Shown: piece after piece, positions 19,071 to 63,961 of the stretch | How the letters are laid out: each line of letters starts with the position of its first letter | How positions within the stretch are numbered: position 1 is the first letter of the stretch | DNA from: Ignavibacteriota bacterium | GTDB lineage: Bacteria > Bacteroidota > Ignavibacteria > Tepidaquicellales > Tepidaquicellaceae | DNA length: 64,000 nt | NCBI GenBank assembly: GCA_026390735.1 | Contig: JAPLFJ010000069.1 | Coordinates: 124,001 to 188,000 of the forward strand | Reading direction: 5' to 3' | The notes under the pieces: generated by a model | What the model saw: only the letters and a program-made list of their open reading frames with translations | Database searches by the model: none | What the model was told of the DNA's origin: nothing | Program-made: the position numbers and the translations under genes

Positions 19071-19437
19071 AATCAGTCTTTATCATTTATTTAGTGTACC
19101 AATCTTTTATCTCTTACTCTAAAATAAAACCAGTGTAAATCAGTTTTTATCATTTTTTTCAGTGTGCGTTCTTTCTATCTCTTACTCTAAATTAATTTCA
19201 GTGAAATCAGTCTTTATCATTTTATTCAGTGTGCCAATCTTTTTATCTCTTATTCTAAATTAAAATCAGTGTGAATCAGTCTTTATCATTTATTTAGTGT
19301 ACCAATCTTTTATCTCTTACTCTAAATTAAAATCCGTGTAAATCCGTTTAATCCGTGTAAATCAGCGTTCTATTCTTTAATATCTTAAAAATCAGTGTGA
19401 ATCAGTCTCTATCATTTTATTCAGTGTGCCAATCTTT
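19071..19437. repeat. Degenerate 67-bp tandem repeat, six copies
   Basis: Copies begin at AATCAGT or AATCCGT at 19071, 19138, 19205, 19274, 19341 and 19400; spacing is 67, 67, 69, 67 and 59 bp, and the last copy is cut at 38 bp. Shared core pieces are CTTTATCATTT, CAGTGTGCCAATCTTT and ATCTCTTACTCTAAATTAAA. The array ends 2 bp before the 3' end of the pepP-like gene. No long open frame crosses it in a sensible way. Confidence 0.88.
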
Positions 19438-19439
19438 CC

Positions 19440-44416: not shown

Positions 44417-44520
44417 TTTGTGGAAAGCTGATACTAAGTTCCTGCAAGGAGATCCATGCCTCATTCCACGGTGCTGTAACGGTAGTGAAGCGAATCTGCA
44501 GCGAAGTTATCTGGCACTTT

Positions 44521-44564
44521 GAAGGCATGTTGATGGCATATTGAAGGCATGTTAAAGGCATATT
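44521..44564. repeat. 22-bp tandem repeat, two copies (four 11-bp halves)
   Basis: GAAGGCATGTTGATGGCATATT (22 bp) is described by its halves: GAAGGCATGTT and GATGGCATATT, then GAAGGCATGTT and AAAGGCATATT at 44543-44564. Confidence 0.7.
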
Positions 44565-44738
44565 GCAAATAAATGGCTGTTTTAGCAGGGGGATACGAGG
44601 CGTTTCTTTTTTGTAGAAGAATTTAAAATTGGGAAATGTGGTTGGGGATTGCTTTCATTTTGCACCATTTTGAGGCAATTATACAATAAGAGTTATGGCA
44701 GGAATCGTTTTAATTAAATATTAGTTTTATTCTGGAGA

Positions 44739-49320: not shown

Positions 49321-50544
49321 ATGGAGCACATGGTTCACAGCGAATCGGACAAGTACAAAAACGATTTGCTTGATGCATTTAAGAAAAAATTCGAGGGGAG
49401 ACTCAGCGATGAAGACCTTGCTTTCATAACAAGTTCATACGACAGGTATATGTTCGAAATGATAAAGCTTATGAGGGAAGGGAAATCTGCGCATGAGAAG
49501 TTCTTTGCTGACATTATCTTAAACTCCATAGATGCGATAGTCGGTTTTAACAATGAAGGTGAAATCTTTCTATGGAATAAAGGGGCAGAGAAAATATTCG
49601 GCTGGGAGAAAAGCGAAATAACAGGTAAGAATTTTAATGTTCTAATTCCGAAAGATATACTCTCTTCAGGCGAAGTTAATAAAATGCTCGCAAAGGTAAA
49701 AGAACAAGGATTCATTTCAAACCACGAAACACTCCGCATTACAAAAACCGGCGAATTAATAAACGTTAGTATATCGAGGTTTGTTATTTTTAATGAAAAG
49801 GGCGAGGATATAGGCAGTGTAGGTATTATCAGGGATATTACGACTGAGAAAAGGCTCGAAAAAGTACTACGCGAAAGAGAAAACCTTGCTCTTATAGGAG
49901 AAGTTGTATCGAGTATTGCACATAATCTTTCAAACCCGTTAAACATAATTTCAGGCAATGCCGATTATTTGTTGCTGGAGAAAAAAGAGGGCGACCCTGA
50001 TTATGAAGAACTGAAGGTTATCGTCGCAGAAGCGACACGCATAACTAAATCTATAAGGTCAATATTGAATTTTGCCAAGCCTCTTATTCCGATGCTTGAA
50101 AGTGTGAGCATAAATGAGCTGCTTGAAGAAGCAACAAGCGGGTTTAAGTTTTTAAAGGGGAATAAAAATGTGGAACTCAGCAAAAAGTTCGACAATAAGG
50201 TCCCGTCAATTAAAGTTGACAAAGAATTAGTAAAAGATGTTTTCTTAAATATAATCAGTAATGCAATCCAGGCTATTCCTTTAAACGTTAAAGGTTTGGT
50301 TGAAGTGAAAACTGTTTTCGACGGCAAGAAAATTATAACTGAGATTTCCGATAACGGTTCTGGCATTTCTCAGAAAGACTTACCGAATATTTTTAAACCA
50401 TTCTATACAACGAAAGGTTATGGAAAAGGAACCGGGCTCGGGCTGGCATTTGCAGACAGGGTAATCAAAGAACATAAAGGTTCGATTGAAGTTAAATCCG
50501 AACAAAACTCCGGCACATCGTTCATAATTTCAATATCTGTATAA
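49321..50544 (+). CDS. PAS-domain sensor histidine kinase
   Basis: A 407-residue cytoplasmic kinase without transmembrane helices. A PAS domain spans about residues 62-180 (NSIDAIVGFNNEGEIFLWN, GKNFNVLIP, SVGIIRDITTEK). The HisKA helix holds His201 in SSIAHNLSNPLN, and the ATPase domain has NIISNAIQAIP, DNGSGIS and GTGLGLAF. It probably phosphorylates the NtrC-type regulator encoded 101 nt downstream. What the PAS domain senses is unknown; there is no haem-binding signature I can see. Confidence 0.9.
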   Translation: MEHMVHSESDKYKNDLLDAFKKKFEGRLSDEDLAFITSSYDRYMFEMIKLMREGKSAHEKFFADIILNSIDAIVGFNNEGEIFLWNKGAEKIFGWEKSEITGKNFNVLIPKDILSSGEVNKMLAKVKEQGFISNHETLRITKTGELINVSISRFVIFNEKGEDIGSVGIIRDITTEKRLEKVLRERENLALIGEVVSSIAHNLSNPLNIISGNADYLLLEKKEGDPDYEELKVIVAEATRITKSIRSILNFAKPLIPMLESVSINELLEEATSGFKFLKGNKNVELSKKFDNKVPSIKVDKELVKDVFLNIISNAIQAIPLNVKGLVEVKTVFDGKKIITEISDNGSGISQKDLPNIFKPFYTTKGYGKGTGLGLAFADRVIKEHKGSIEVKSEQNSGTSFIISISV

Positions 50545-50645: not shown

Positions 50646-51995
50646 ATGGCAGAAATTATAAAAGCGCTGGTTGTCGATGACGAACCGAATCAATCAAATC
50701 TAATCCGCAAAGTCCTTATAAAGAAGGGTTTAGACGTAACAGAGGAAAACGATAGTGCCGTAGCAAAAGAACTTATAAAAAGTAATTTTTATGATTTAAT
50801 AGTATCCGACTTACAAATGCCCGAGGTCTCGGGTATGGACCTGCTTACAATCACACCGAAAGAAACACTGTTTATTATGATTACGGGTTTCGGTTCTGTT
50901 TTATCTGCGGTTGATTCAATGAAAAACGGTGCTTATGATTACGTCAATAAGCCATTCAACCTTGATGAGTTTATTCTGAAGATTGAAAAAGCCATTGAGA
51001 AAATTAACATCACAAAAGAGTTATACAGTTTTAAGAATTTAGTAACGGATAAAGAGCCCTATCTGGGAATAATAGGAACAAGCAAAAGAATGATGGAGGT
51101 TTATGATTTTATAGATAAGACTTCCAAGATAAACGTTAATGTTCTGGTTCAGGGACAGAGCGGCACAGGGAAAGAATTAGTTGCAAGAGCATTGCATTTC
51201 AGCAGTGACAGAAAAGATCATCCGTTTGTTGCGATTAACTGCAGTGCAATACCTGAGAACCTGCTTGAAAGCGAATTGTTCGGACATACAAAAGGCGCAT
51301 TCACGGGTGCAATCGAAAACCAGAAAGGTGTTTTTGAACAGGCTAACAACGGAACGTTATTTCTTGATGAAATAGCCGAAATGCCTTATCAGTTGCAAGC
51401 TAAGCTCCTGCGCGTACTTGAAAACTGGGAATTTAAACCTATAGGAAGTGACAAGATAAAAACAGTTGACGTCAGATTAATCTCCGCAACAAATCAGAAC
51501 ATACAGGAAATGATCAGCAATAAACTTTTCAGGGAAGACCTTTTCTACAGAATCTCAACAATCTCTTTGAATCTTCCAACATTGAACGACAGGATATCTG
51601 ATATTCCAGCGCTAACTAATCACATACTTAAAAATATTTCTAAAAAGTTCGGTAAAGAAATTAAGATAGCGCCAGACGCCATTACACTTTTAACCAAGCA
51701 TAACTACAAAGGAAACGTAAGGGAACTTGAAAACATTCTTGAGCAGGCGGCGGTTTCTGCTACAAACAACAAGATTGAAGTAAAGAATCTTACAATCAGT
51801 GAAGATAAAACTTTCCTCGATGATTGTCTTGCAAATACAGATGGAATGAGTTTAAAAGATCTTGAAAGGAAGTATATACTAAAAGTTCTTGAAACAACAA
51901 ATGGCAACAAGAAGAAAGCTGCAGAGAAATTAGGGATAGACAGAAAGACGCTTTATAACAAATTAGCGGAGTTTGGCCTACTTATAAAAGAGTAA
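50646..51995 (+). CDS. NtrC-family sigma-54-dependent response regulator
   Basis: A 449-residue regulator: receiver domain (1-120, phospho-acceptor Asp55 in LIVSDLQMP), AAA+ domain (about 140-375) with [25 protein letters not shown] (the sigma-54-contact loop), [13 protein letters not shown] and FREDLFYRI, and a Fis-type helix-turn-helix at 410-449. It should activate promoters read by RNA polymerase with sigma-54. A matching promoter lies 170 nt downstream, in front of the cytochrome cluster. It shares the operon with the histidine kinase. Confidence 0.94.
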
Positions 51996-52166: not shown

Positions 52167-52182
52167 TGGTATAGTAATTGCA
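52167..52182 (+). promoter_or_regulatory. Sigma-54 (RpoN) promoter
   Basis: TGGTATAGTAATTGCA: GG and GC are in the places and spacing of the -24/-12 consensus (TGGCACG-N4-TTGCA), and the -12 part TTGCA is perfect. It lies 31 nt before the start of the receiver-like gene and 172 nt after the NtrC-type activator. Candidate activator sites upstream include an inverted repeat CTTAA...TTAAG (52055-52072), which I cannot confirm. Confidence 0.75.
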
Positions 52183-52213: not shown

Positions 52214-52603
52214 TTGAAATTTAGAATTAAAATATTTTGTCTAATTCCTGAAATTTGTGCACTTATTCAAAAAGTACTCGCAAAGTACGACTATGAGTTC
52301 AAATGTGTAAACACCATTAATGAGTTTCTGAAGAAATCGGAAGACGAGATTATCGATGAATGCGAGAATTCTGCTGACATTGTGATACTGGATCAGGAAC
52401 TGGACAAGGATTTTAAGTTAAAGCTGATAAAGAGGTTTGAAAGAATAGATTTTATATGTTTGCCTTCTCTGGATGAAAGCGATACCATTACGGAAAGCCC
52501 GGCAAACGTAAAACGTATTTCAGAACCTTTCAAATTAAGTGAATTTGAAGAGGTGTTATTACAAATAATCAAAAATAAATCAGAGTCAGATGTTAAAAAG
52601 TAA
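52214..52603 (+). CDS. Degenerate receiver-domain protein
   Basis: A 129-residue protein starting at TTG (no ATG fits). It looks like a CheY-type receiver: hydrophobic strand IKIFCL, IVILDQEL with the Asp in the phospho-acceptor place, and RISEPFKLSEFEEVL where receivers have KPF. The usual acidic pair after strand 1 is missing (LIPE) and the Lys before PF is Glu. It probably does not accept phosphate in the normal way. It overlaps the 19-haem cytochrome gene by 14 nt and is the first gene after the sigma-54 promoter. I cannot name the family. Confidence 0.6.
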   Translation: MKFRIKIFCLIPEICALIQKVLAKYDYEFKCVNTINEFLKKSEDEIIDECENSADIVILDQELDKDFKLKLIKRFERIDFICLPSLDESDTITESPANVKRISEPFKLSEFEEVLLQIIKNKSESDVKK

Positions 52604-54476
52604 AATAGCGGCATTAATATTATTGTTTGTATTTGTATTGGTTACAGGAGTCGTTGTTTTTAAGTTTAATTTAATCAGAGCAAGGGGTTCAGACGAATGT
52701 TTTGCCTGTCACGAGGACAAAACACTTGCAATGGATGTTAACGGCAAAAAGAAATCAATTTTTGTCGACCCTGTTCTTTTCAAAAATTCCACCCATAGTG
52801 CGTTTGACTGTAAGGATTGTCACGAGGGTTACAACCCTGACGAATTTCCTCATAACCCCAAGAAGGTTAAAATTAATTGCAGAGGGTGTCACGAAAAAGC
52901 AAAGAGTTTGGAAAACGGAGTTCATAAAAACAACGACTGTGCAGACTGCCATAACCCGCATAATCAGAAACCCGCAAAGGAAATGAAGGCAAATCAAACT
53001 GCCACATGCCTGAAATGTCATACAAACAGAAATGTTACGGATTACAATACGAGTATTCACGCAAAGAAAAATGTCGGTTGCGATGGCTGTCACAAAAGCG
53101 GTCACGATGCGAAGAAAATAACAAAGGGGGAAGTAGTACAGGTTTGCGGAAACTGTCATGGTTCTCATCAGAAGGACTTTAACAACAGTATTCATCAAAC
53201 CGTTATGAAGGGCGGAAATAAAAATACACCTACCTGTATTGATTGTCACGGTTCTCATAAAATCGTAGGGAATAAAATGTCAATTGAATCTATTGCGTGT
53301 CTGAAATGCCACCTTGACGAAAAATTATTCCCGGGAGACCAGAAAGGTTCTGCAAAATTTGTAGCGAAGTACAAAACAAGTATTCATTCCTCAATACAAA
53401 TAGACGGTAAACAGGCGGCAGGGTGTGTTGATTGCCACGGTAACCATATGATTGAATCCACAAACGACCCTACAAAATCTACTGTCAGAGCACGTATGAT
53501 GGAAACATGCGGAAAATGTCACACAAAAGAAATCGATCATTATTACAAATCTTCTCACGGGCAGGCTTATAAAAACGGAGATAATAATGCTCCAACCTGT
53601 TTCCAGTGCCATGGTGAGCATGGAATTAATTCAGTATTGCGATCAGACGATTTTTCAAAGATAAATCAGACTGAAATGTGTTTGTCGTGCCATCAGGATA
53701 ACAGGGTTAATAAAAACAAGGAAACACACCTAAACGACTATAAAAAGAGTTTTCATTACATAGCTTTGCAAAACGGAAACACTAAAGCGGCTACATGCAG
53801 TAATTGTCACGGACCTCATGAAATGAAACCGGCATCAGATCCTGAATCACAAATTTATAAAAAGAATGTAGATGGAACCTGTGGTCAAATCGGGTGCCAT
53901 GAACAGGAGAAAAAAGATTATTCAGGAAGTATTCATCACACGACTTTAATGTCTAAAGAAAACTCTGATTCTCCTACCTGTAACAGTTGTCACGGAGCAC
54001 ATCAGGTTGTTAACACTGATTCACTAGGAAAAGACCAGGGATCAAAACAAAAGGGTATCGTTAAATTATGTTCGAACTGTCACGCCTCTGTCGAGTTAGT
54101 GCGTAACAATAATTTACCTAATGTAGCCTCAAACTATAATGAAAGTTTTCACGGTCTGGCAGTCAGAGGTGGTTCAAACAAGGCTGCTTCCTGCGGAAGT
54201 TGTCATGGTAATCATAATATCCGACCATCAACCGATTCATTATCAACCATAAACAAGAAGAATCTTGGTCAGACTTGCGGTAAGTGTCATCCGGGTGCTG
54301 ATAATGTATTCCTGAACACAAAAATGCATATTCTTAAAGCAGAAACAGATAATCCAATGCTGTTCTGGATTACCAGATTTTATATACTCATGATTATTGG
54401 TGTTATTGGAGGAATGGTGTTGCATAATATTTTAGATTATCGCAGAAAATTAAAAGAGAAAAAGGCGGGACAATAG
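52590..54476 (+). CDS. 19-haem c-type cytochrome, membrane-anchored
   Basis: 628 residues with an N-terminal helix (7-27) and a C-terminal helix (about 590-612), so probably anchored with the haem domain in the periplasm. I count 18 CXXCH motifs (from CFACH to CGKCH) plus one CX4CH, CGQIGCH at nt 53880-53900. Repeats of the form SIH/SFH...C..CHG.H suggest internal duplication. The following gene, 2 nt away, encodes a di-haem cytochrome b, so the pair looks like a quinol:cytochrome c oxidoreductase of the bc type used in metal-respiring bacteria. Acceptor unknown. Confidence 0.88.
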   Translation: MLKSKIAALILLFVFVLVTGVVVFKFNLIRARGSDECFACHEDKTLAMDVNGKKKSIFVDPVLFKNSTHSAFDCKDCHEGYNPDEFPHNPKKVKINCRGCHEKAKSLENGVHKNNDCADCHNPHNQKPAKEMKANQTATCLKCHTNRNVTDYNTSIHAKKNVGCDGCHKSGHDAKKITKGEVVQVCGNCHGSHQKDFNNSIHQTVMKGGNKNTPTCIDCHGSHKIVGNKMSIESIACLKCHLDEKLFPGDQKGSAKFVAKYKTSIHSSIQIDGKQAAGCVDCHGNHMIESTNDPTKSTVRARMMETCGKCHTKEIDHYYKSSHGQAYKNGDNNAPTCFQCHGEHGINSVLRSDDFSKINQTEMCLSCHQDNRVNKNKETHLNDYKKSFHYIALQNGNTKAATCSNCHGPHEMKPASDPESQIYKKNVDGTCGQIGCHEQEKKDYSGSIHHTTLMSKENSDSPTCNSCHGAHQVVNTDSLGKDQGSKQKGIVKLCSNCHASVELVRNNNLPNVASNYNESFHGLAVRGGSNKAASCGSCHGNHNIRPSTDSLSTINKKNLGQTCGKCHPGADNVFLNTKMHILKAETDNPMLFWITRFYILMIIGVIGGMVLHNILDYRRKLKEKKAGQ

Positions 54477-54478
54477 TA

Positions 54479-55177
54479 ATGGCATCAGAAGAAAAATATT
54501 TAAGAATGACTTTGAATGAGAGAATCCAGCATTTTCTGCTTCTCTCTACTTTTATGACTTTGGTATTTACGGGATTTGCTTTAAAATATCCGGAAGCTTT
54601 CTGGGTTAAATGGACAATGTTTTTTATCGGCAAAAACGCTTTTGAATTAAGAGGAGTAGTACACAGAGTAGCGGCAGTATTGATGACTGGCGCTTCTGTA
54701 TATCATTTATTCTATATAATTTTTACAAGGCGCGGCAGAAAATTAGTAGCCGACCTTTGGTTCTACAAAAAAGACTTAACCGATTTATTTCAGTCCATAG
54801 GTTATATAACAGGCAAGAAGGACGAAAGACCAAAACTCGGAAGGTTCAGTTACATAGAAAAAGCAGAATACTGGGCAGTGGTCTGGGGAACGTTTGTAAT
54901 GGGTGCAACGGGAAGTCTGTTGTGGTTTCAGAATTACTTCCTTCCGATTATAAATGTTTACGGAATGGATATAGCGACTGCAGTCCACTGGTACGAAGCA
55001 ATATTGGCGTCACTTGCAATTCTGGTCTGGCACTTTTACTTTATTTTCATGAACCCTGATGTTGCACCTATGAATAAAGCCTGGTTTACAGGCTATCTGA
55101 CGCGGCACCAGATGGAAAATGAACATCCGCTGGAACTGGAAGAAATTGAGGCCCGGCAGCATAAAGAAAAGCTGTAG
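54479..55177 (+). CDS. Di-haem cytochrome b (formate dehydrogenase gamma-like)
   Basis: 232 residues, four transmembrane helices. Likely haem-ligand histidines are His18 (RIQHFLLLS) in helix 1, His62 and His76 in helix 2 (RGVVHRVAA, SVYHLFYI), and the two in TAVHWYEA and VWHFYFIF in helix 4. This pattern fits the FdnI/HybB-like cytochrome b561 fold, which takes electrons from quinol to haem c. It lies 2 nt after the 19-haem cytochrome. Confidence 0.85.
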   Translation: MASEEKYLRMTLNERIQHFLLLSTFMTLVFTGFALKYPEAFWVKWTMFFIGKNAFELRGVVHRVAAVLMTGASVYHLFYIIFTRRGRKLVADLWFYKKDLTDLFQSIGYITGKKDERPKLGRFSYIEKAEYWAVVWGTFVMGATGSLLWFQNYFLPIINVYGMDIATAVHWYEAILASLAILVWHFYFIFMNPDVAPMNKAWFTGYLTRHQMENEHPLELEEIEARQHKEKL

Positions 55178-55213
55178 TTTTAGATTATTATATCATTAAA
55201 CAGATTTTTAGAT

Positions 55214-55236
55214 AACTGCAGATTCAATCTGCAGTT
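55214..55236 (+). other. Intercistronic hairpin
   Basis: A perfect 10-bp stem AACTGCAGAT (55214-55223) with ATCTGCAGTT (55227-55236) and a 3-nt loop. No T run follows, so it is more likely an mRNA stability or processing element than a terminator. It lies between cytochrome b and the NapC-like gene. Confidence 0.6.
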
Positions 55237-55258
55237 TGCAATTTAAAAAAACAATATT

Positions 55259-57286
55259 ATGGATGAAGAAAAGAAAACCAAGAAAAGAAGATTGTTTAAA
55301 ACTGTAACAGGTTTTAGGAGATTTCTATTGTTTTCGGGAATATATTTTGTACTTTTTGTTATCATACTTGCGGCTACAGCCGAATATACTTCACGTCCGA
55401 GTTTTTGCCCGACCTGCCATTATATGGAGCCTTTTTATAACAGCTGGAAGTCTTCCTCGCATAATAAGATTCAGTGTGTGCAATGTCACTTTGAACCAGG
55501 GCTTGAAGGAAAGATAAAAGGAAAATTAAACGGGCTGGTTCAGATTGTCAGTTATGTGTCCACTTCATACAAGAAAAGAAAACCATGGGCCGATATACCT
55601 GATAACACATGTTCAAGAGAGGGTTGTCACGTAAATCAGTCTATACAGGATACGTTATACGAAACAAAAGGTGTGTCGTTTAATCACAAACATCACTTAT
55701 CTGAACTGAGGAGGGGCAAAAAATTAAAGTGTACAAGCTGTCACTCTCAGATTGTTCAGGGGTCTCATATGCAGGTAACTTATTCAACCTGCTTTAACTG
55801 CCACTTTCATAAATCAGATGACCCGGAACACAAATATGACAAGTTGTCGGATTGCCAGACCTGTCATAAACTAAAGAGCAAAACACAGGAACAGTTAGCA
55901 TCGATGAAGTATAATCATACTGTTGTTGTGAAAAATGATATGAACTGTTCGAGTTGTCACGTTAATGTAGTTTCAGGAAAAGGAGAAGTAGGCAAAGAGA
56001 GGTGTTTCCAGTGTCATTTTGAGGACAATAAAATAGACAAGTATAATGACATAGAATTCATGCATACGACGCATATTTCAAAGCACAGCATGAACTGTAT
56101 GTATTGCCATACTCCGATAAAGCATAAGATTGAAAAAATGGATGCCAATGCTCCGCCTGATTGTCAGAGCTGCCATACAGGAGCACACACTTATCAGGTA
56201 AGTCTGTTTGCAGGTGAAAACGGAAATAACACAGAAAACTTACCAAGTTCAATGTATGTAAGCGGAATAAACTGTAAAGGTTGTCACGTTCTGCACGAGA
56301 TTGATAAAAGGGACATTAACACTTCAAAGGCAAGCAAGAATGCCTGTGATCAGTGTCACGGAGAAGGTTATGGGAAATTAATTAAACAATGGGAAAACTC
56401 TTCAATTAAAAGACTTGCAACAATTAAGTCGATTTATGCTGTTGCAAAGAATATTGTAAGTTCATCCGGAAGTAACAGAAAAAATGAGGCATTGCTGAAA
56501 CTTGACGAAGCTTATCACAACATTAAAATTGTTGATATAGGGAAGAGTGTTCATAACATTCAGTTTGCCGATAAACTTCTTATCGGAAGTTATGGTATTA
56601 TGAATGAGGCGTTGAAAATGGTAGGTTCTACCAAAACGTTACCTGAGTTTAAGTCAAACTCAGAATTTGTTCCGAACGAATGTTATAATTGCCATGCGGG
56701 AATCCAGGAAGCAGACACAAAAGCATTCGGAAAACCTTTTTCACATAAAGGGCATATTGTAAAACAAAGATTACAGTGCAACAAATGTCATTCAAATGAC
56801 AACAAGCACGGACAGTTAATTATCACGCAATCAAGTTGTAACAATTGTCATCATAATAATGCTAAAACGAGTGAGTCCTGTAACGATTGTCACAAGATTC
56901 AATCGCAAACATTCAACGGTACACTGAACGGTAAAAACCAGCCTGATATAATGAAAGAGGGTGGAACGAAGTGTAATGATTGCCATCTGTCTTCATCTGT
57001 AATCGTTAAACCTGACTCCAAAATCTGTTCAAAATGTCATGACGCAGGATACAGCAACACAATGGCAGACTGGAAGAAAGATGTTACATCGCTGGTAAAG
57101 GAAGCCGATAATTTAATAAATGATGTAAAGAGCAAGGAGTTAAGCGAAGAAAACAAAACCGTAATAAATGAAACACGTAAGTTAATTAATATGGTTAATT
57201 CCAACCCAAGTCTTTATGTACATAATAACGAGTTGATAAGTTCTTTGTTATCTGAAAAAATAAAACTATTAAAGAAAATGAAGTAG
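55259..57286 (+). CDS. 18-haem cytochrome with NapC/NirT-like N-terminus
   Basis: 675 residues. One N-terminal transmembrane helix (about 21-42) precedes CPTCHYMEPFYNSW and CVQCHFEPG, the beginning of a NapC/NirT/NrfH-type domain that oxidises quinol. I count 17 CXXCH motifs and one CX4CH (CSREGCH, nt 55610-55630). A haem-free helical stretch at about residues 380-465 divides twelve haem sites from the last six, and another haem-free tail ends the protein. It is a fusion of a quinol dehydrogenase head with a long multihaem wire. Confidence 0.85.
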   Translation: MDEEKKTKKRRLFKTVTGFRRFLLFSGIYFVLFVIILAATAEYTSRPSFCPTCHYMEPFYNSWKSSSHNKIQCVQCHFEPGLEGKIKGKLNGLVQIVSYVSTSYKKRKPWADIPDNTCSREGCHVNQSIQDTLYETKGVSFNHKHHLSELRRGKKLKCTSCHSQIVQGSHMQVTYSTCFNCHFHKSDDPEHKYDKLSDCQTCHKLKSKTQEQLASMKYNHTVVVKNDMNCSSCHVNVVSGKGEVGKERCFQCHFEDNKIDKYNDIEFMHTTHISKHSMNCMYCHTPIKHKIEKMDANAPPDCQSCHTGAHTYQVSLFAGENGNNTENLPSSMYVSGINCKGCHVLHEIDKRDINTSKASKNACDQCHGEGYGKLIKQWENSSIKRLATIKSIYAVAKNIVSSSGSNRKNEALLKLDEAYHNIKIVDIGKSVHNIQFADKLLIGSYGIMNEALKMVGSTKTLPEFKSNSEFVPNECYNCHAGIQEADTKAFGKPFSHKGHIVKQRLQCNKCHSNDNKHGQLIITQSSCNNCHHNNAKTSESCNDCHKIQSQTFNGTLNGKNQPDIMKEGGTKCNDCHLSSSVIVKPDSKICSKCHDAGYSNTMADWKKDVTSLVKEADNLINDVKSKELSEENKTVINETRKLINMVNSNPSLYVHNNELISSLLSEKIKLLKKMK

Positions 57287-57325
57287 GTTGTTTCGATAGC
57301 TGTTTTAACTAAAAAAAGATAATAT

Positions 57326-58597
57326 ATGAGAGACAGAAAACATATAGTAACGATTTTTTCCTTAATTGTATTCGTTATTATTATTGGCGTGATAGCCCGG
57401 TTGATTTTAAAACCGGATTCTTTCGGCGAGCACGGTCAATACAGATGGAATGCAGTTTCTGAATTACAAAAACAGGAAATTGTGAACCAGAATATCAGTA
57501 CCTGCGCGAAATGTCATGATGATATTTATCAGTTGCATGAAAAAGATGCTCATTTTAGTGTCCCTTGTGTTGATTGCCATGGTGCAGGTAATTTACATGT
57601 ACTTTTTCATGAAGGGGGAGACAGCGCAAAACAAATTACAAAAGAACAGGCAGCTCTTCCAAAAGAATACAAACTTGAGGGTTGTCTTTTTTGTCACAAG
57701 AAATTAAAAGCAAGACCTTCGGATTTTCCGCAGATTAATCAGGAAGATCATTATAAGTTTCTTAATGTTCCTGACCTGAAGACTAAATGTATTGAATGCC
57801 ATAGTCCTCATCAGCCTGTATTCATGCTGACCGCAGTCAGGGAAGCAAGAATACACCCTATTGTTTACAGATGTACTGAGTGCCACGATAAAAAACCCGA
57901 GCAGAGCTTTAAGGAAGTTGCAGGCCACCCTGCAATATTTGAATGCAACGACTGTCATCCAAAGATAGTAAAGAGTTTTAATGAACGTCCGCACCATAAA
58001 TACATTGAATGCAGAACGTGTCACCTTTATCACAAAGAAAATGAAACAACCGGCAGAATATATAAGAATGGAAACGCAAGATTCTGTTTGCTTTGTCACG
58101 AAAAGAAACCATTCAAGGATGAAAATTATCCGCCTAAAATTGAATGGCCTTCTCACGTCGGAAATTCTAATATAATAACGAAAAGTGACGAAAAAATTTG
58201 TCTGAATTGTCATGCTGACAGAATTCACGATATGGATGTGAAGATAAGGGCAAACCCACATTCAAGTGACTGGGTCTCAACACACAAAAATTTTGCAAAG
58301 GTGCAATTAACCGTATGTCAGGGTTGTCACACAAGTAACGACTGTTCTTCGTGTCACTCAAAAACAAAACCTGTTTCTCATAATCAGAACTGGAGAAAGC
58401 AGCATCCGTCTTTTGGAGCGAAAAACCAATCAACCTGTGAGATGTGTCACAAAAAAGACGCGTGTATGAATTGTCATAAGTTGTCGATGCCGCATCCCAA
58501 AGGATTTGAGGATAACCACAAAGAAGTGGCTACACAAAAAGGTAAAGCGGTGTGTATGAACTGCCACAAAGAGGAATTTTGTAAACAATGCCATTAA
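57326..58597 (+). CDS. 15-haem c-type cytochrome, membrane-anchored
   Basis: 423 residues with an uncleaved N-terminal helix (about 7-28). I count 15 CXXCH motifs, from CAKCH near residue 54 to CKQCH, which forms the last five residues. Haems 10-15 are crowded into the last 100 residues. The next two genes encode an NrfC-like iron-sulfur protein and an NrfD-like quinol subunit, so this may be their electron acceptor, as NrfB or cytochrome c is in related complexes. Confidence 0.87.
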   Translation: MRDRKHIVTIFSLIVFVIIIGVIARLILKPDSFGEHGQYRWNAVSELQKQEIVNQNISTCAKCHDDIYQLHEKDAHFSVPCVDCHGAGNLHVLFHEGGDSAKQITKEQAALPKEYKLEGCLFCHKKLKARPSDFPQINQEDHYKFLNVPDLKTKCIECHSPHQPVFMLTAVREARIHPIVYRCTECHDKKPEQSFKEVAGHPAIFECNDCHPKIVKSFNERPHHKYIECRTCHLYHKENETTGRIYKNGNARFCLLCHEKKPFKDENYPPKIEWPSHVGNSNIITKSDEKICLNCHADRIHDMDVKIRANPHSSDWVSTHKNFAKVQLTVCQGCHTSNDCSSCHSKTKPVSHNQNWRKQHPSFGAKNQSTCEMCHKKDACMNCHKLSMPHPKGFEDNHKEVATQKGKAVCMNCHKEEFCKQCH

Positions 58598-58617
58598 ACT
58601 TAGATAAATAAAACAGA

Positions 58618-59376
58618 ATGGAAAAAATAGAAAGACGTCAATTTATTAAGTTAGGATTATTCAGCACTGCAGGAATTCTGGTTGGTTCGTTTTTTGCATT
58701 TGCGAAAACCGAAAAAGACATTGAAGTAAACAGTTATGAAGACTTGCTGAAATTCGACTGGGGTTATATTGTTGACACAACAAGATGCATCGGATGTGGT
58801 TCGTGCGTCCGCGCCTGTAAAGTTGAGAACGAAGTCCCTGAGGGATATTTCAGGACTTGGGTTGAAAGGTTTGAAATAACAAAAGATGAAACAGTATACG
58901 TAGATTCTCCAAAAGGTGCTATAGAAGGATTTAACAGGGATAATGCGCAAACCGCAGAAATTGTAAAAGCATTTTTTGTTCCTAAATTGTGTAATCACTG
59001 CTACGACGCCCCTTGTATACAGGTTTGTCCTGTCGGCGCATCTTATCGTTCTCCTGATAAAGTTGTTCTGGTTGACAAAGAACATTGTGTGGGTTGTGGT
59101 TATTGTGTACAGGCCTGTCCATACGGCGTCAGGTATATAAATGAAGAAAAGGGAGTAGCCGATAAATGTACTTTGTGTTATCACAGAATACAAAAAGGAT
59201 TAGCCCCTGCATGTGTAAATTCCTGTCCGAGAAATGCAAGGATATACGGTAATCTTAAAGATCCGAACAGTGAAATAAATAAGGTTCTCCATCAACGAAG
59301 GTATGGACTTCTGAAACCTGACCTGGGAACCAATCCAAAATGTTTCTATATTGGTTTAGATAAGGAGGTAAAATAA
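58618..59376 (+). CDS. NrfC/DmsB-like 4x[4Fe-4S] protein with Tat signal
   Basis: 252 residues. The twin-arginine signal is ERRQFIKLG followed by a hydrophobic stretch, so the folded protein is exported and probably stays anchored. Four cysteine groups fit four [4Fe-4S] clusters: CIGCGSCVRAC, CNHCYDAPCIQVCP, CVGCGYCVQACP and CTLCYHRIQ...CVNSCP. It passes electrons between the NrfD-like subunit encoded next and a cytochrome. Its last codons contain a perfect AAGGAGGT ribosome site for the next gene. Confidence 0.92.
   Translation: MEKIERRQFIKLGLFSTAGILVGSFFAFAKTEKDIEVNSYEDLLKFDWGYIVDTTRCIGCGSCVRACKVENEVPEGYFRTWVERFEITKDETVYVDSPKGAIEGFNRDNAQTAEIVKAFFVPKLCNHCYDAPCIQVCPVGASYRSPDKVVLVDKEHCVGCGYCVQACPYGVRYINEEKGVADKCTLCYHRIQKGLAPACVNSCPRNARIYGNLKDPNSEINKVLHQRRYGLLKPDLGTNPKCFYIGLDKEVK
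59362..59369 (+). promoter_or_regulatory. Perfect Shine-Dalgarno sequence
   Basis: AAGGAGGT, 6 nt before the ATG at 59376. It stands out because most genes in this window show no such sequence. It lies inside the end of the iron-sulfur gene, so it should raise NrfD synthesis in step. Confidence 0.75.
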
Positions 59377-60533
59377 TGGATACTCTAAGTAATTATATTT
59401 TCCCAAATGAATTTCATATTACCTGGACAGTTATGATTGTTTTATACCCGTACATAACAGGTATGGTCGCGGGCGCTTTTATAGTCTCATCTTTTTACCA
59501 TGTGTTTAATATGGAGAAACTTAAAACAGTGGCCAGATTTGCACTCGTATCATCATTGGCATTCCTGCTCTTTGCCACGGTTCCTCTTTTAAACCATCTG
59601 GGCCGACCAGAGCGTGCGTTCTATATTATGATGACTCCAAATTTCAGTTCAGCTATGAGCGGGTTCGGTTTTATTTATTCATTTTATATGATAATCGTTG
59701 TTCTGGAAATCTGGCTGAGTTATCGTGTTGAGATTATCGATAAATATAATAAATCCAATGGAATTGTAAAATTTATATACCTCGTTGTTTTATTGGGGAA
59801 CGCGAATGACAATGAAAACACAAGAAGGTTTGATAAACGATTAGTTATTGCATTAGCAAGTTTTGGAATACCCGTTGCTTGTATTCTGCACGGATATGTA
59901 GGTTTCCTTTTCGGTTCTATTAAGGCAAACCCATGGTGGTCAACACCTCTTATGTTTATAATATTTATTTTTTCTGCCATCGTTTCAGGCTTAGCGGTTT
60001 TGATATTTTTATATCAGTTTGTTCATTGGATGAGAAAAAGGAGTATAGACCAGGACTGCCTTGATTTAATGGCAAAATGGCTTTGGGGTTTTATGATAAT
60101 TGCAGTTACACTAGAACTTATGGAAGTTCTGTCAATTTCTTATGAAAACACAGAAAGATGGGCTATACTCAGACAATTAATAGACGGCAAACTAAAATTA
60201 TCTTACGTCTACTTGCAGATCGGACTGTTTTCTATTGTCCCATTTATTATGCTTACAATTACGTCTCTGTCTAAAATGAAAAACACTAAAGTGAAAAATC
60301 TTACAATATGGATTGCTTCGGTAATGCTGTTATTACAGGTTTTGTTTATGCGCTGGAATGTTGTTATTGGCGGACAATTGGTTTCTAAAAGTATGCGTGG
60401 GTTTACTGAATATTTTCCGGGATTGTGGGATAAAGAAGGACTTATTGTATCCTTCCTTATAATTTTAGTACCTTTTGTTTTATTGTATTTATTCGATAAG
60501 GTATTTCCGTTTTTCGGTGAGAAAAGCCATTAA
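59376..60533 (+). CDS. NrfD/PsrC-like quinol-interacting membrane subunit
   Basis: 385 residues with about nine or ten transmembrane helices. FATVPLLNHLGRPERAFYIM is a typical NrfD segment (split near residues 66-85) and LNHLGRPER is the most diagnostic. It should bind quinol and pass electrons to the iron-sulfur partner, whose stop codon overlaps its ATG by one base. The pair plus the 15-haem cytochrome resembles the NrfCD-type module of Cbc and alternative complex III families, without the molybdoenzyme subunit. Confidence 0.9.
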   Translation: MDTLSNYIFPNEFHITWTVMIVLYPYITGMVAGAFIVSSFYHVFNMEKLKTVARFALVSSLAFLLFATVPLLNHLGRPERAFYIMMTPNFSSAMSGFGFIYSFYMIIVVLEIWLSYRVEIIDKYNKSNGIVKFIYLVVLLGNANDNENTRRFDKRLVIALASFGIPVACILHGYVGFLFGSIKANPWWSTPLMFIIFIFSAIVSGLAVLIFLYQFVHWMRKRSIDQDCLDLMAKWLWGFMIIAVTLELMEVLSISYENTERWAILRQLIDGKLKLSYVYLQIGLFSIVPFIMLTITSLSKMKNTKVKNLTIWIASVMLLLQVLFMRWNVVIGGQLVSKSMRGFTEYFPGLWDKEGLIVSFLIILVPFVLLYLFDKVFPFFGEKSH

Positions 60534-60710
60534 GCAGAATTTGTAATAATATACATTTATAAGGAACACATGACAATTACCGGAGTTAAATAAAGAGGAT
60601 ATTAAGGCATTAAAAAGAGACAGAAAATATGTTGAAAAAAACAAATATTGAATTTAATTTTATACTAATAAAAACTATATTTAATTAACTTAAACTAAAA
60701 CCAAACAAAC

Positions 60711-61259
60711 ATGAAAAAGAAAATTTTCATCACTGTTAGTCTGACGTTATTCGTGGGAATGTTTTTGTTCTCATTTTCTGTTATTCCAACAGATAACGCA
60801 GGTCAGAACAAGTATGTTGGTGTCAGCAAATGTGGTCCTTGCCACAAGTCTGAGTCAGCCGGAAAACAACTTAGTATCTGGCAGGATTCCAAACATGCAA
60901 ATGCCTGGAAAACTTTAGAATCACCTGAAGCAGATAAAATTGCCAAGGATAAAGGATTCGGAAAAGCCAGTGAAACACCAGCATGTATCAAATGTCACGT
61001 TCTCGGAAAAGACCTTGACCCGTCTGAGTTTGCCGAAACATTCGACAAAACACAGGGTGTACAATGTGAAACTTGTCACGGTGCAGGTTCCGAATACAAG
61101 TCAACCATGAAAGACAAAGCAAAAGCCATCGAAAACGGATTAATCGTTGGTGCAGGTGAAACATTATGCACAGGCTGTCACAATTCTGAAAGTCCTTCAT
61201 TCAAAGGATTCAAGTATGATGAAATGTGGGCAAAAATTAAACATTCAAAAGGTAATTAA
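60711..61259 (+). CDS. Exported tetrahaem cytochrome (c554-like)
   Basis: 182 residues with a cleavable signal peptide (about residues 1-24). Four CXXCH motifs: CGPCH, CIKCH, CETCH and CTGCH. The KYVGVSKCGPCHKSE opening, the SKHANAWKTL segment and VQCETCHGAGSEY are typical of the cytochrome c554 family of small periplasmic electron carriers. It has its own 177-nt upstream gap and a terminator, so it may be made in larger amounts than its neighbours. It could shuttle electrons to the outer membrane. Confidence 0.87.
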   Translation: MKKKIFITVSLTLFVGMFLFSFSVIPTDNAGQNKYVGVSKCGPCHKSESAGKQLSIWQDSKHANAWKTLESPEADKIAKDKGFGKASETPACIKCHVLGKDLDPSEFAETFDKTQGVQCETCHGAGSEYKSTMKDKAKAIENGLIVGAGETLCTGCHNSESPSFKGFKYDEMWAKIKHSKGN

Positions 61260-61270
61260 TTGTTCTTAAT

Positions 61271-61308
61271 ATGAAGGTCATATATTTAATATGACCTTCA
61301 TTTTTTTA
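61271..61308 (+). terminator. Rho-independent terminator
   Basis: A perfect 13-bp stem ATGAAGGTCATAT (61271-61283) with its complement (61289-61301), then seven T. It may separate the tetrahaem gene from the porin gene or only lower read-through. Confidence 0.9.
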
Positions 61309-61346
61309 AATCTTAAGATTTATTTTATTAAAAATTACTTCATATT

Positions 61347-62672
61347 ATGAGGAAATTAATACTAGTTACGTTTATTTTGTTCTTTGCATTTCTTGCTTCG
61401 GGATATTCCCAGTCGTTAAATTTACGGTTAAACAGTTCTTTTTATACATGGAAAAGACTTGATGCCGTTCCCGAAACCTTAAAAAGTGCAACTTACACAA
61501 CGCATCTTACCGGTTATCAGAATATGGCTTTTGATCTTAATTTTGGTAAATGGACTTTTAGCACGTCCTTACAAACCGACGAAGATGTAATTAACAGAAA
61601 TGGGAGAGGTTTTTCTTACAGGTTTTACGATGCTTTTCTAAAAGGAAGTAATCTGTTTAATGTACTCGATTTGAAACTTGGCAGGCAATATGTCTCTGCA
61701 GGTTCCGGTAAAGGTACTATTGACGGAGCTCATTTTAAGTTAAAACTTGGAGAGAAAAAAGAGTATCAGATTATAGGATACGGTGGTTATCTTACACCGC
61801 TTGCCTATGATTTTGACAAGGAAGGTTACAAGAAAAAGTTATCTGAAAACTTTCTTGCAGGCGGACAGTTTCTTTATTACGGAATAAAGGACTTATATGC
61901 AGGATTGAGTTATGCCAACAAAAACCGGGCAATGGAACCATATTGGACTACACGTGCTGACTCAGTATTTAATCCTATGGATTATTATGTACAACCTGAG
62001 TCACAAGCTAATCAGTCGGCAGGTCTTGACCTTACATACAGATTAGCAAAAAGACATAACCTTTATGGAAAATTGTACTATGACTTTAATCAGAAAAGAA
62101 TTTTCAAAGGTGAATTCAACGGTTCTTTTGCTTTAAACGACAAAATTAAATTGTCAGTCGGTTATGATTATAAAGAACCGCAGTTAAGTGTTAATACTGT
62201 GTTCTGGGTTTTCAATTACCAGAAATATCAGGAAATACAGGGCGGCCTTGATTATTTAACGAAATTTATGGGAACCAACATTAATATATACGGAAGATTT
62301 GGCGGTGTTATTTACGACAAAGACAATTCATTGAAATTCCAGCTGGGCGTTTCCAGTTCTTCTTATGGGTTAGGTATAACAAAATATACAGGTTATTCCG
62401 GCGAGTCAGAAGGCGCTTTTGCGTATTTTAATCACGACATTGTTAAATCCTTCCTGGCTTTAACATCAAGTTTAAACTATTCAAGGTATAATCTCGGAAA
62501 CAGTAACAGCGATAAGGTAAATGTATTCGGTGGAACACTTGGTCTGACATACAGACCTGTAAGCCGTTTTTCAATCGACGCCCAGGGTCAGTTAATGACA
62601 AATGAAATTTATAAAACCGATACAAGATTCCTGATAGGATTCAATTACTGGCTCTTTAGCAATTTTAATTAA
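61347..62672 (+). CDS. Outer-membrane beta-barrel, possible porin of a cytochrome conduit
   Basis: 441 residues with a signal peptide (cut near YSQS, residue 22). The remainder alternates short amphipathic strands and ends in FLIGFNYWLFSNFN, with many aromatic residues, as in outer-membrane barrels; I estimate 16-20 strands. There is no CXXCH. It sits between a tetrahaem and a 14-haem cytochrome, the arrangement of porin-cytochrome complexes (MtrB- or OmbB-like role). The sequence does not resemble MtrB by eye, so the role rests on context. Confidence 0.7.
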   Translation: MRKLILVTFILFFAFLASGYSQSLNLRLNSSFYTWKRLDAVPETLKSATYTTHLTGYQNMAFDLNFGKWTFSTSLQTDEDVINRNGRGFSYRFYDAFLKGSNLFNVLDLKLGRQYVSAGSGKGTIDGAHFKLKLGEKKEYQIIGYGGYLTPLAYDFDKEGYKKKLSENFLAGGQFLYYGIKDLYAGLSYANKNRAMEPYWTTRADSVFNPMDYYVQPESQANQSAGLDLTYRLAKRHNLYGKLYYDFNQKRIFKGEFNGSFALNDKIKLSVGYDYKEPQLSVNTVFWVFNYQKYQEIQGGLDYLTKFMGTNINIYGRFGGVIYDKDNSLKFQLGVSSSSYGLGITKYTGYSGESEGAFAYFNHDIVKSFLALTSSLNYSRYNLGNSNSDKVNVFGGTLGLTYRPVSRFSIDAQGQLMTNEIYKTDTRFLIGFNYWLFSNFN

Positions 62673-62692
62673 TAACATAAGCATAATATATT

Positions 62693-63961
62693 ATGAGTTT
62701 AAAAAAGTTTTATATAGTATTTTTAAGTAGTGCAATATTGTTTGTATCGCTCACTGCTTATGTTTCCAAAAATAAGAGTTTAACAAATATTTTCGGTAAA
62801 TCGGAAGTTGTTAATGTGAGTATTGTAAGCAATAAAGATGTGATTAAATTTGATCACCAGTTCCATCTGTCAAAGGATGTCGGACTTGCCTGTAAGGATT
62901 GTCATAAAGGAGCTTTAGAGTCAAACAAGGTTTCTGATAACCTTAATCCTAAAATGGCTGACTGTTCAAGTTGTCACGACATAAAAGATAAGAAGAACTG
63001 TAAACAGTGTCACTACGACGGTGTTTATAAAGACTTTGCACCGGTGAAAAAAGAGATATTGTTCTCTCACAAAAAGCACGTCGGTCAGAAAATTGAATGT
63101 GCTCAGTGTCATACGGGTTTTGACAAAGTGAAATATTCATCCGACGCAGTTAACGGTGGTTTCCCGAATATGGAAAACTGCTACACATGTCATAACGGTA
63201 CAAAACAGGTTAATAATTGTGAGGCGTGTCATACAAACCTGACAAACCTTAAACCAAAAGACCATTTAAATTCAAATTATCTGAATGAGCATAAATTAGT
63301 GTACGATGTTGCTACAGGCAATAACAACAGCAACTGTATGATGTGTCATTCAGGTAACTTCTGTGAGAACTGTCACCAGCCGGCAAAATACAAAGGTGAA
63401 AATACAAAGGGTAATTTCTATGCACCTTATTACACCAAGGATTTTGCCACAAGAACAGACAGGGCTTCTTTACAGAAACTTACTACTGTTCATGACCTGA
63501 ATTATCAGTTTACACATGGATTAGATGCCAGACAAAAAAGTTTTGAATGTAAAACCTGTCACGACCCTATCGATTTCTGCGCGTCCTGTCACCAGAACGG
63601 TGGAAACCTTCCAACAGGCCTGATGCCGAAGAATCACTACCTTACAAACTTCAAAACATTTGGAGTAAATTCGGGTGGCGGTTTGCATGCAGACCTGGCG
63701 AAGAGAGATATGGAGTCATGTGAGGCCTGTCATAGTGTTAACGGTGCCGACCCTACCTGCGTTAAGTGTCATTTTGACAACGACGGTATAAAGGGTACAA
63801 ACCCAAAAACACACGAATCAGGATTTATGAAAGACACTCATGGAAGTTGGCATAATACAAAAGGGGCGGTATGTTATACGTGCCATACTGATCCTACGGC
63901 AAGACCGGACGGAAATTCCGGTGTTGGTTTCTGCGGTTACTGTCACGGCAAAAAAAAGTAA
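62693..63961 (+). CDS. 14-haem c-type cytochrome, exported
   Basis: 422 residues with an N-terminal hydrophobic segment (about 5-24) that may be a signal peptide or anchor; no lipobox. I count 14 CXXCH motifs, from CKDCH to CGYCH at the very end. FDHQFHL and FSHKKHV before haem groups supply distal histidines, as in c3/c7-type repeats. It starts 20 nt after the barrel gene and is a candidate for the haem wire inside or beside that barrel. Confidence 0.87.
   Translation: MSLKKFYIVFLSSAILFVSLTAYVSKNKSLTNIFGKSEVVNVSIVSNKDVIKFDHQFHLSKDVGLACKDCHKGALESNKVSDNLNPKMADCSSCHDIKDKKNCKQCHYDGVYKDFAPVKKEILFSHKKHVGQKIECAQCHTGFDKVKYSSDAVNGGFPNMENCYTCHNGTKQVNNCEACHTNLTNLKPKDHLNSNYLNEHKLVYDVATGNNNSNCMMCHSGNFCENCHQPAKYKGENTKGNFYAPYYTKDFATRTDRASLQKLTTVHDLNYQFTHGLDARQKSFECKTCHDPIDFCASCHQNGGNLPTGLMPKNHYLTNFKTFGVNSGGGLHADLAKRDMESCEACHSVNGADPTCVKCHFDNDGIKGTNPKTHESGFMKDTHGSWHNTKGAVCYTCHTDPTARPDGNSGVGFCGYCHGKKK

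What the first reader, a model, noticed from the sequence alone, without database searches (positions are those of the whole stretch)
52214..63961. Seventy-haem electron-transfer island under sigma-54 control
Seen: nine consecutive plus-strand genes (52590-63961) encode five c-type cytochromes with 19, 18, 15, 4 and 14 haem motifs (68 CXXCH and 2 CX4CH), a di-haem cytochrome b, an NrfC-like and an NrfD-like subunit, and an outer-membrane barrel. Known: such parts build quinol-oxidising inner-membrane complexes and porin-cytochrome conduits in metal-reducing bacteria. Inferred: a complete route from the quinone pool to outside the cell in a T9SS-type (Ignavibacteria-like) organism. The combination and gene order match no named system I know.
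Basis: partly seen in the sequence, partly recalled or inferred. Interest (0 to 1): 0.88.

Follow-up and report, generated by a model that had tools for sequence, protein, structure and literature searches.

The report
Ignavibacterial porin-cytochrome conduit operon
This is a large gene cluster that most likely carries respiratory electrons from the inner membrane to the outside of an Ignavibacteria cell; its outer-membrane core is an already published type of conduit, here bundled with an unusually complete and variable set of inner-membrane feeders and a conserved RNA hairpin that may set the ratio of its parts.

Summary
In detail: nine plus-strand genes with 68 CXXCH and 2 CX4CH motifs at the stated places. 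The operon does not end with the window. Ten bases on lies a 279-aa lipoprotein-like cytochrome with six CXXCH and one CX4CH, then cytochrome-maturation genes ccmC, ccmE, ccmF, giving 77 haem motifs. Across Ignavibacteria a four-gene core (tetrahaem c554-type, barrel, 14-haem, surface lipoprotein) is almost invariant, while the inner-membrane genes vary. That core matches the porin-cytochrome (Pcc) cluster IALB_1840-1837 described in Ignavibacterium album in 2014 (PMC4245776), so "no named system" is wrong for the core. The 19-haem protein plus cytochrome b is a split form of a CbcL-like fusion seen in other families. Sigma-54 control is well supported. New here: a covarying terminator-like hairpin directly behind the tetrahaem gene, suggesting this cytochrome is made in excess of the conduit. 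Verdict: a real extracellular-electron-transfer operon, a new variant of a known kind, moderate interest. Function is inferred, not shown.

The parts
49321..50544 (+). PAS-domain histidine kinase (AtoS/NtrB type), putative sensor for the operon
   Evidence: PF00989, PF00512, PF02518; link to the operon by adjacency only
50646..51995 (+). NtrC-type response regulator, sigma-54 activator with GAFTGA
   Evidence: PF00158 3e-70, PF00072, PF02954; GAFTGA; next to the operon in many relatives
52167..52182 (+). sigma-54 promoter motif TGGTATAGTAATTGCA
   Evidence: same motif at the homologous place in six further near-relative genomes, expected 0.005 in shuffles
52214..52603 (+). small degenerate receiver-like protein ('rec')
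   Evidence: weak NCBIfam hit; conserved in position and in motifs D and SEPF-LSEL, but without the acidic pair and the lysine of working receivers
52590..54476 (+). c19: 19-haem c-type cytochrome with C-terminal membrane anchor
   Evidence: 18 CXXCH + CX4CH; in other families a like protein is fused to the cytochrome b domain
54479..55177 (+). cytochrome b of the FdnI/b561 type, putative quinol site
   Evidence: PF01292, TIGR01583; 1kqf_C E 4e-5; His 18, 62, 76, 170, 185, 216 conserved
55259..57286 (+). c18: 18-haem cytochrome with NrfH/NapC-like membrane-anchored N-terminus
   Evidence: TIGR03153 3.7e-16 (below cut-off), PF03264; NrfH 2j7a_C E 9e-6
57326..58597 (+). c15: 15-haem cytochrome, optional cassette
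   Evidence: in 6 of 99 relatives
58618..59376 (+). NrfC/TtrB/DsrO-like 4Fe-4S subunit with twin-arginine signal, optional cassette
59376..60533 (+). NrfD-like membrane subunit, optional cassette
   Evidence: PF03916 4.7e-35
60711..61259 (+). c4: tetrahaem c554-family cytochrome, first gene of the conserved core
   Evidence: PF13435 1.5e-17; profile matches Nitrosomonas cytochrome c554, E 1.9e-12; directly before the barrel in 68 of 80 loci
61271..61301 (+). conserved hairpin with T-run (terminator-like, possible attenuator) between c4 and the barrel
   Evidence: z -4.9; 5 of 11 pairs with compensatory change, all cells paired
61347..62672 (+). outer-membrane beta-barrel, about 22-24 strands, conduit sheath
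   Evidence: model; barrel matches; adjacent to c14 in 79 of 80 loci
62693..63961 (+). c14: 14-haem c7-type cytochrome, putative trans-barrel or periplasmic wire
   Evidence: all 14 motifs, 12 other His and 2 Met conserved; profile matches 3ov0 (Geobacter c7 polymer), E 2.6e-24. The next gene (c6lp, 7 haem motifs) starts 10 nt beyond, outside the window

Best explanation
A sigma-54-controlled operon for extracellular electron transfer in an Ignavibacteria bacterium. Inferred path: quinol is oxidised at the cytochrome b (working with the 19-haem protein as a split CbcL-like enzyme), at the NrfH-like anchored 18-haem protein, and optionally at an NrfCD-type complex with the 15-haem protein; electrons pass through periplasmic haem chains, probably helped by an abundant tetrahaem c554-type carrier, into the 14-haem protein held in the wide barrel, and out to the seven-haem surface lipoprotein encoded just beyond the window. 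The last four genes are a Pcc-type porin-cytochrome conduit, the ignavibacterial branch already reported in I. album. Shown by sequence: the parts, their order, the class-wide co-conservation, the promoter motif, the hairpin. Inferred: membrane topology, complex formation, direction of electron flow, acceptor, attenuation.
For: Conserved core: barrel next to 14-haem in 79 of 80 loci, 14-haem next to surface cytochrome 79 of 80, tetrahaem next to barrel 68 of 80; barrel in 102 of 148 relatives and, in a phylum-wide draw, essentially only in this class. Match to published Pcc: I. album periplasmic cytochrome IALB_1838 is described as 400 aa with 14 haem motifs, IALB_1837 as an outer-membrane cytochrome with an atypical motif, IALB_1839 porin, IALB_1840 extra periplasmic cytochrome; the Ignavibacterium sp. 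locus L151 here has a 400-aa 14-haem protein in the same four-gene order, with an atypical motif in the last gene. Fused haem-rich/cytochrome b proteins occur in about 20 loci of other families. Barrel model pLDDT 88. Sigma-54 site plus adjacent sigma-54 activator. ccm genes in the same run. Loci include MAGs named Melioribacter roseus; the species is an Fe(III) reducer according to PMC6137239.
Against: No experiment on any of these proteins. I. album itself, with the core, was reported unable to use Fe(III) or Mn(IV) oxides (PMC4245776), so the acceptor may be something else. The 14-haem model is poor (pLDDT 52), so insertion into the barrel is not tested. OmbB of Geobacter could not be compared directly.
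Confidence: 0.85

Rival explanations
1. The conduit works inward or serves a non-mineral partner: electrons are exchanged with other cells, soluble sulphur or nitrogen compounds, or humics, rather than with Fe(III) minerals.
For: I. album carries the core but was reported not to respire Fe(III) or Mn(IV) oxides (PMC4245776); the same genome also has ORFs that look like NrfH/NrfA, alternative complex III and cytochrome bd.
Against: Loci include MAGs named Melioribacter roseus, a species reported to reduce Fe(III), and Ignavibacteria were found in anode biofilms (PMC7399161).
Confidence: 0.35
2. The genes are several independent respiratory modules (Nrf/Hmc-like enzyme, CbcL-like enzyme, conduit) that sit together for regulation only and do not form one path.
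For: Inner-membrane genes differ between families, and the c15-FeS-NrfD cassette is in only 6 of 99 relatives and in different slots.
Against: In the window's family and order the core mostly follows c19, cytb and c18 on the same strand; tight spacing and overlapping genes.
Confidence: 0.2
3. The tetrahaem c4 is the subunit of an OmcE-like extracellular nanowire.
For: Tetrahaem, secreted, placed next to a conduit; possibly over-produced (hairpin).
Against: Only two conserved non-motif histidines and one methionine for four haems in an alignment of 77 sequences, whereas an OmcE-like wire needs every haem bis-His (general knowledge); profile hit to 7tfs (OmcE, from memory) is not significant (E 0.33).
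Confidence: 0.07
4. The barrel is an ordinary solute or TonB-dependent porin that happens to lie beside cytochrome genes.
For: Best structural alignments are to TonB-dependent receptor barrels, Z about 20, as expected for a 22-strand-sized barrel.
Against: No plug domain in the 419-residue model; strict linkage to the 14-haem gene across a whole class.
Confidence: 0.04

Closest known systems
Pcc cluster of Ignavibacterium album JCM 16511 (IALB_1837-1840), PMC4245776
   Same: Same four parts: extra periplasmic cytochrome, porin, 14-haem periplasmic cytochrome of about 400 aa, outer-membrane cytochrome with an atypical haem motif
   Different: Here the same strand also carries the quinol-linked genes, an NrfCD cassette, ccm genes and a sigma-54 system; a hairpin behind the tetrahaem gene is not mentioned in the parts of the paper read
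Geobacter OmbB-OmaB-OmcB (Pcc)
   Same: Porin, periplasmic multihaem, outer-surface multihaem in adjacent genes
   Different: 8- and 12-haem partners in Geobacter versus 14 and 7 here; PMC4245776 places the I. album porin and cytochrome outside the Geobacter groups; OmbB not compared here
Shewanella MtrCAB / PioAB
   Same: Barrel plus multihaem cytochrome idea
   Different: PF11854 absent from the barrel and the whole genome; 14 rather than 10 haems; smaller barrel
CbcL / MtrH / MtoC quinone oxidoreductases
   Same: Multihaem c domain with FdnI-like cytochrome b; fused form in relatives
   Different: Split into two genes in the window; 19 haems
NrfH/NapC and ImcH
   Same: N-terminal NrfH-like anchored domain of the 18-haem protein
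   Different: Far more haems; below curated cut-off for NrfH; ImcH not compared
NrfCD, Hmc, Qrc, DsrOP complexes
   Same: 4Fe-4S plus NrfD pair beside a multihaem cytochrome
   Different: 15-haem partner; optional cassette

Membership tests
Pcc porin-cytochrome conduit | Adjacent genes for porin, periplasmic multihaem cytochrome and outer-membrane cytochrome | tested here: met
   the third gene lies just beyond the window; locations are predictions
Pcc porin-cytochrome conduit | Porin of about 18-22 predicted strands, smaller than MtrB | tested here: inconclusive
   Model shows 24 strand segments, two of them short, so 22-24
Pcc porin-cytochrome conduit | Homology to a published Pcc member | tested here: inconclusive
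Pcc porin-cytochrome conduit | Electron transfer across a membrane | not testable with these tools
   Needs proteoliposomes or mutants
Mtr/Pio/Mto conduit | MtrB/PioB barrel family PF11854 | tested here: not met
   No hit for the barrel or in the genome
Mtr/Pio/Mto conduit | 10-haem MtrA-type partner | tested here: not met
   14 conserved motifs
CbcL-like quinone oxidoreductase | Multihaem c domain plus FdnI-type cytochrome b | tested here: met
   c19 + cytb adjacent; PF01292
CbcL-like quinone oxidoreductase | Both in one polypeptide | tested here: not met
   Two genes in the window; fused in other families
OmcE-type cytochrome nanowire | All haems bis-His, with ligands to match | tested here: not met
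   Two non-motif His and one Met conserved for four haems; ligands from a neighbouring subunit would be the same residues, so do not help
OmcE-type cytochrome nanowire | Sequence relation to OmcE | tested here: inconclusive
   7tfs E 0.33
TonB-dependent receptor | N-terminal plug domain | tested here: not met
   Model is barrel from residue 2 to 416
Sigma-54-dependent operon | -24/-12 promoter and NtrC-type activator | tested here: met
   transcription not measured

The most novel reading that the evidence does not exclude
The Ignavibacteria conduit is an independently evolved porin-cytochrome system, with its own barrel family and a near-obligate c554-type tetrahaem partner whose excess over the conduit is set by a conserved RNA terminator, so that one operon writes the whole quinone-to-surface path and its stoichiometry.
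Probability: 0.25. Interest if true: 0.6.

Novelty: new variant of a known kind. Interest (0 to 1): 0.45.

Why it matters
Extracellular electron transfer outside Proteobacteria is known mostly from scattered clusters. This shows a core that is nearly constant across a whole class, with exchangeable quinol-side modules, and makes a clear prediction about which parts are essential (the core four) and which may tune the redox range (the inner-membrane modules). The hairpin gives a simple, testable idea for how a carrier can be made in excess of its outer-membrane conduit.

Tried and rejected
A single-protein scan of named genomes with the barrel found nothing; the 14-haem alignment worked. The AlphaFold model of the 14-haem protein was too poor to use (pLDDT 52), so fit inside the barrel was not judged. 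No match to MtrB/PioB was seen among the structural hits shown, which does not exclude a relation. Nanowire reading of c4 rejected on ligand count. Rfam: nothing at gathering threshold and one sub-threshold chance-like hit. No tRNA in the window. Geobacter OmbB, ImcH and I. album JCM 16511 proteins could not be fetched; the 2014 Geobacter Pcc paper is not held. A search for papers naming IALB_1838 found only PMC4245776. An alignment of the hairpin with L090 included failed because that stem has a different sequence.

Full report
Observation. No other ORF of 100 aa or more in the window has two CXXCH motifs. The window ends inside the operon: the next gene, 10 nt on, encodes a 279-aa lipoprotein-like cytochrome (start ending in LYGC) with six CXXCH and one CX4CH, and carries the Geobacter C4xCH/C2xCH domain; a small lipoprotein and ccmC, ccmE, ccmF follow. 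The run therefore holds 77 haem motifs and part of a haem-attachment machinery.

Host. Close relatives fetched by name are Ignavibacteria, including Melioribacter roseus-labelled MAGs, Stygiobacter electus and Ignavibacterium sp..

Conserved core. In 80 named loci the order barrel > 14-haem occurs 79 times, 14-haem > surface cytochrome 79 times, tetrahaem > barrel 68 times. The barrel is found in 102 of 148 relatives; in a phylum-wide sample of 394 genomes it is confined to the class but for one weak hit. All 14 haem motifs of the 14-haem protein are conserved, with 12 further histidines and two methionines, that is one possible axial ligand for each haem. Its profile matches the Geobacter c7-polymer structure 3ov0.

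Already known. Shi and colleagues (PMC4245776) list a Pcc cluster in Ignavibacterium album: porin IALB_1839, periplasmic IALB_1838 (400 aa, 14 haem motifs, the largest they found), outer-membrane IALB_1837 with an atypical motif, extra periplasmic cytochrome IALB_1840. The Ignavibacterium sp. locus L151 shows this set with a 400-aa, 14-haem protein. Later papers report Pcc-type porins in further Ignavibacteria (PMC7399161; PMC6137239). That the window's core is this family is thus very likely, although I could not align the I. album JCM 16511 proteins themselves.

Inner-membrane modules vary. c19 and the cytochrome b are separate genes in the window's family and order, but in about 20 loci of other families a cytochrome b domain with 39-55% identity is fused to a 13- to 18-haem protein. 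This points to a split CbcL-like quinone oxidoreductase; PMC4245776 describes b-type-like membrane cytochromes beside other pcc clusters. c18 starts with an NrfH/NapC-like anchored domain. The c15-FeS-NrfD cassette is in 6 of 99 relatives and sits either after c18 or between cytb and c18, so it is an optional module. A different NrfD-FeS-12-haem cluster on contig C69 of the same genome has homologues beside the core in several other loci.

Regulation. The NtrC-type regulator has the sigma-54 interaction domain and GAFTGA. TGGTATAGTAATTGCA at 52167 fits the -24/-12 consensus, 31 nt before the first gene of the run. The strict motif recurs at the homologous place in six further near-relative genomes; shuffles give 0.005 for all 26 loci (the list holds some genomes twice and the shuffles keep only base composition). 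More distant relatives lack it. The small receiver-like gene in front of c19 keeps a phospho-acceptor-like aspartate but lacks the acidic pair and the lysine, so it may be a pseudo-receiver.

Hairpin. Directly behind c4 lies a 13-pair stem with a T-run (z -4.9). All five species of the genus that were looked at have it, with 5 of 11 pairs showing compensatory change and all cells paired, against at most 55% when slid (five sequences only, and the structure came from one of them). Two further genomes of the family have a stem of different sequence in the same gap. Most other genes of the run lack one, apart from candidates behind cytb, ccmE and ccmF. The simplest reading is partial termination, giving more c4 than conduit; it remains untested. 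In other families c4 and the barrel are mostly 10-40 nt apart and no stem was found.

Barrel. The model is an all-beta barrel without plug, pLDDT 88. Structural hits are generic large barrels, best TonB-dependent receptors at Z about 20: a size match, not a relation. MtrB/PioB (PF11854) is absent from the genome.

Tetrahaem. c4 belongs to the c554 family. With two conserved non-motif histidines and one methionine for four haems, an OmcE-like bis-His wire is unlikely; a periplasmic or membrane-attached carrier, perhaps with an open haem, is more likely.

Judgement. What is shown is anatomy and co-conservation. That the operon moves electrons from quinol to the outside is the best inference; the acceptor is open, since I. 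album was reported not to use Fe(III) or Mn(IV) oxides.

Noticed in passing
G000 contig C69 5211-11998 (locus L012): A second NrfD / 4Fe-4S / 12-haem cluster with its own NtrC-type two-component pair; homologues lie beside the conduit core in L057, L089, L098, L121, L131 and others.
   Followed up: partly
window 61271-61301: Covarying hairpin plus T-run between the tetrahaem and barrel genes, present in the genus and, with different sequence, in two further genomes.
   Followed up: yes
window 52214-52603: Conserved pseudo-receiver-like protein with a SEPF-LSEL motif, overlapping the first cytochrome gene.
   Followed up: partly
window 19071-19438: Tandem repeat of a 67-bp unit, about four copies, in an intergenic stretch.
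   Followed up: no
window 44512-44565: Short 11/22-bp tandem repeat TTGAAGGCATA.
   Followed up: no
L095 3317-11876 (same genome as L073): One genome carries two tandem copies of the four-gene core.
   Followed up: no
L058:1978-4602 (same gene in L134): Surface cytochrome gene enlarged to 874 aa with 28 haem motifs in one Melioribacteraceae genome.
   Followed up: no
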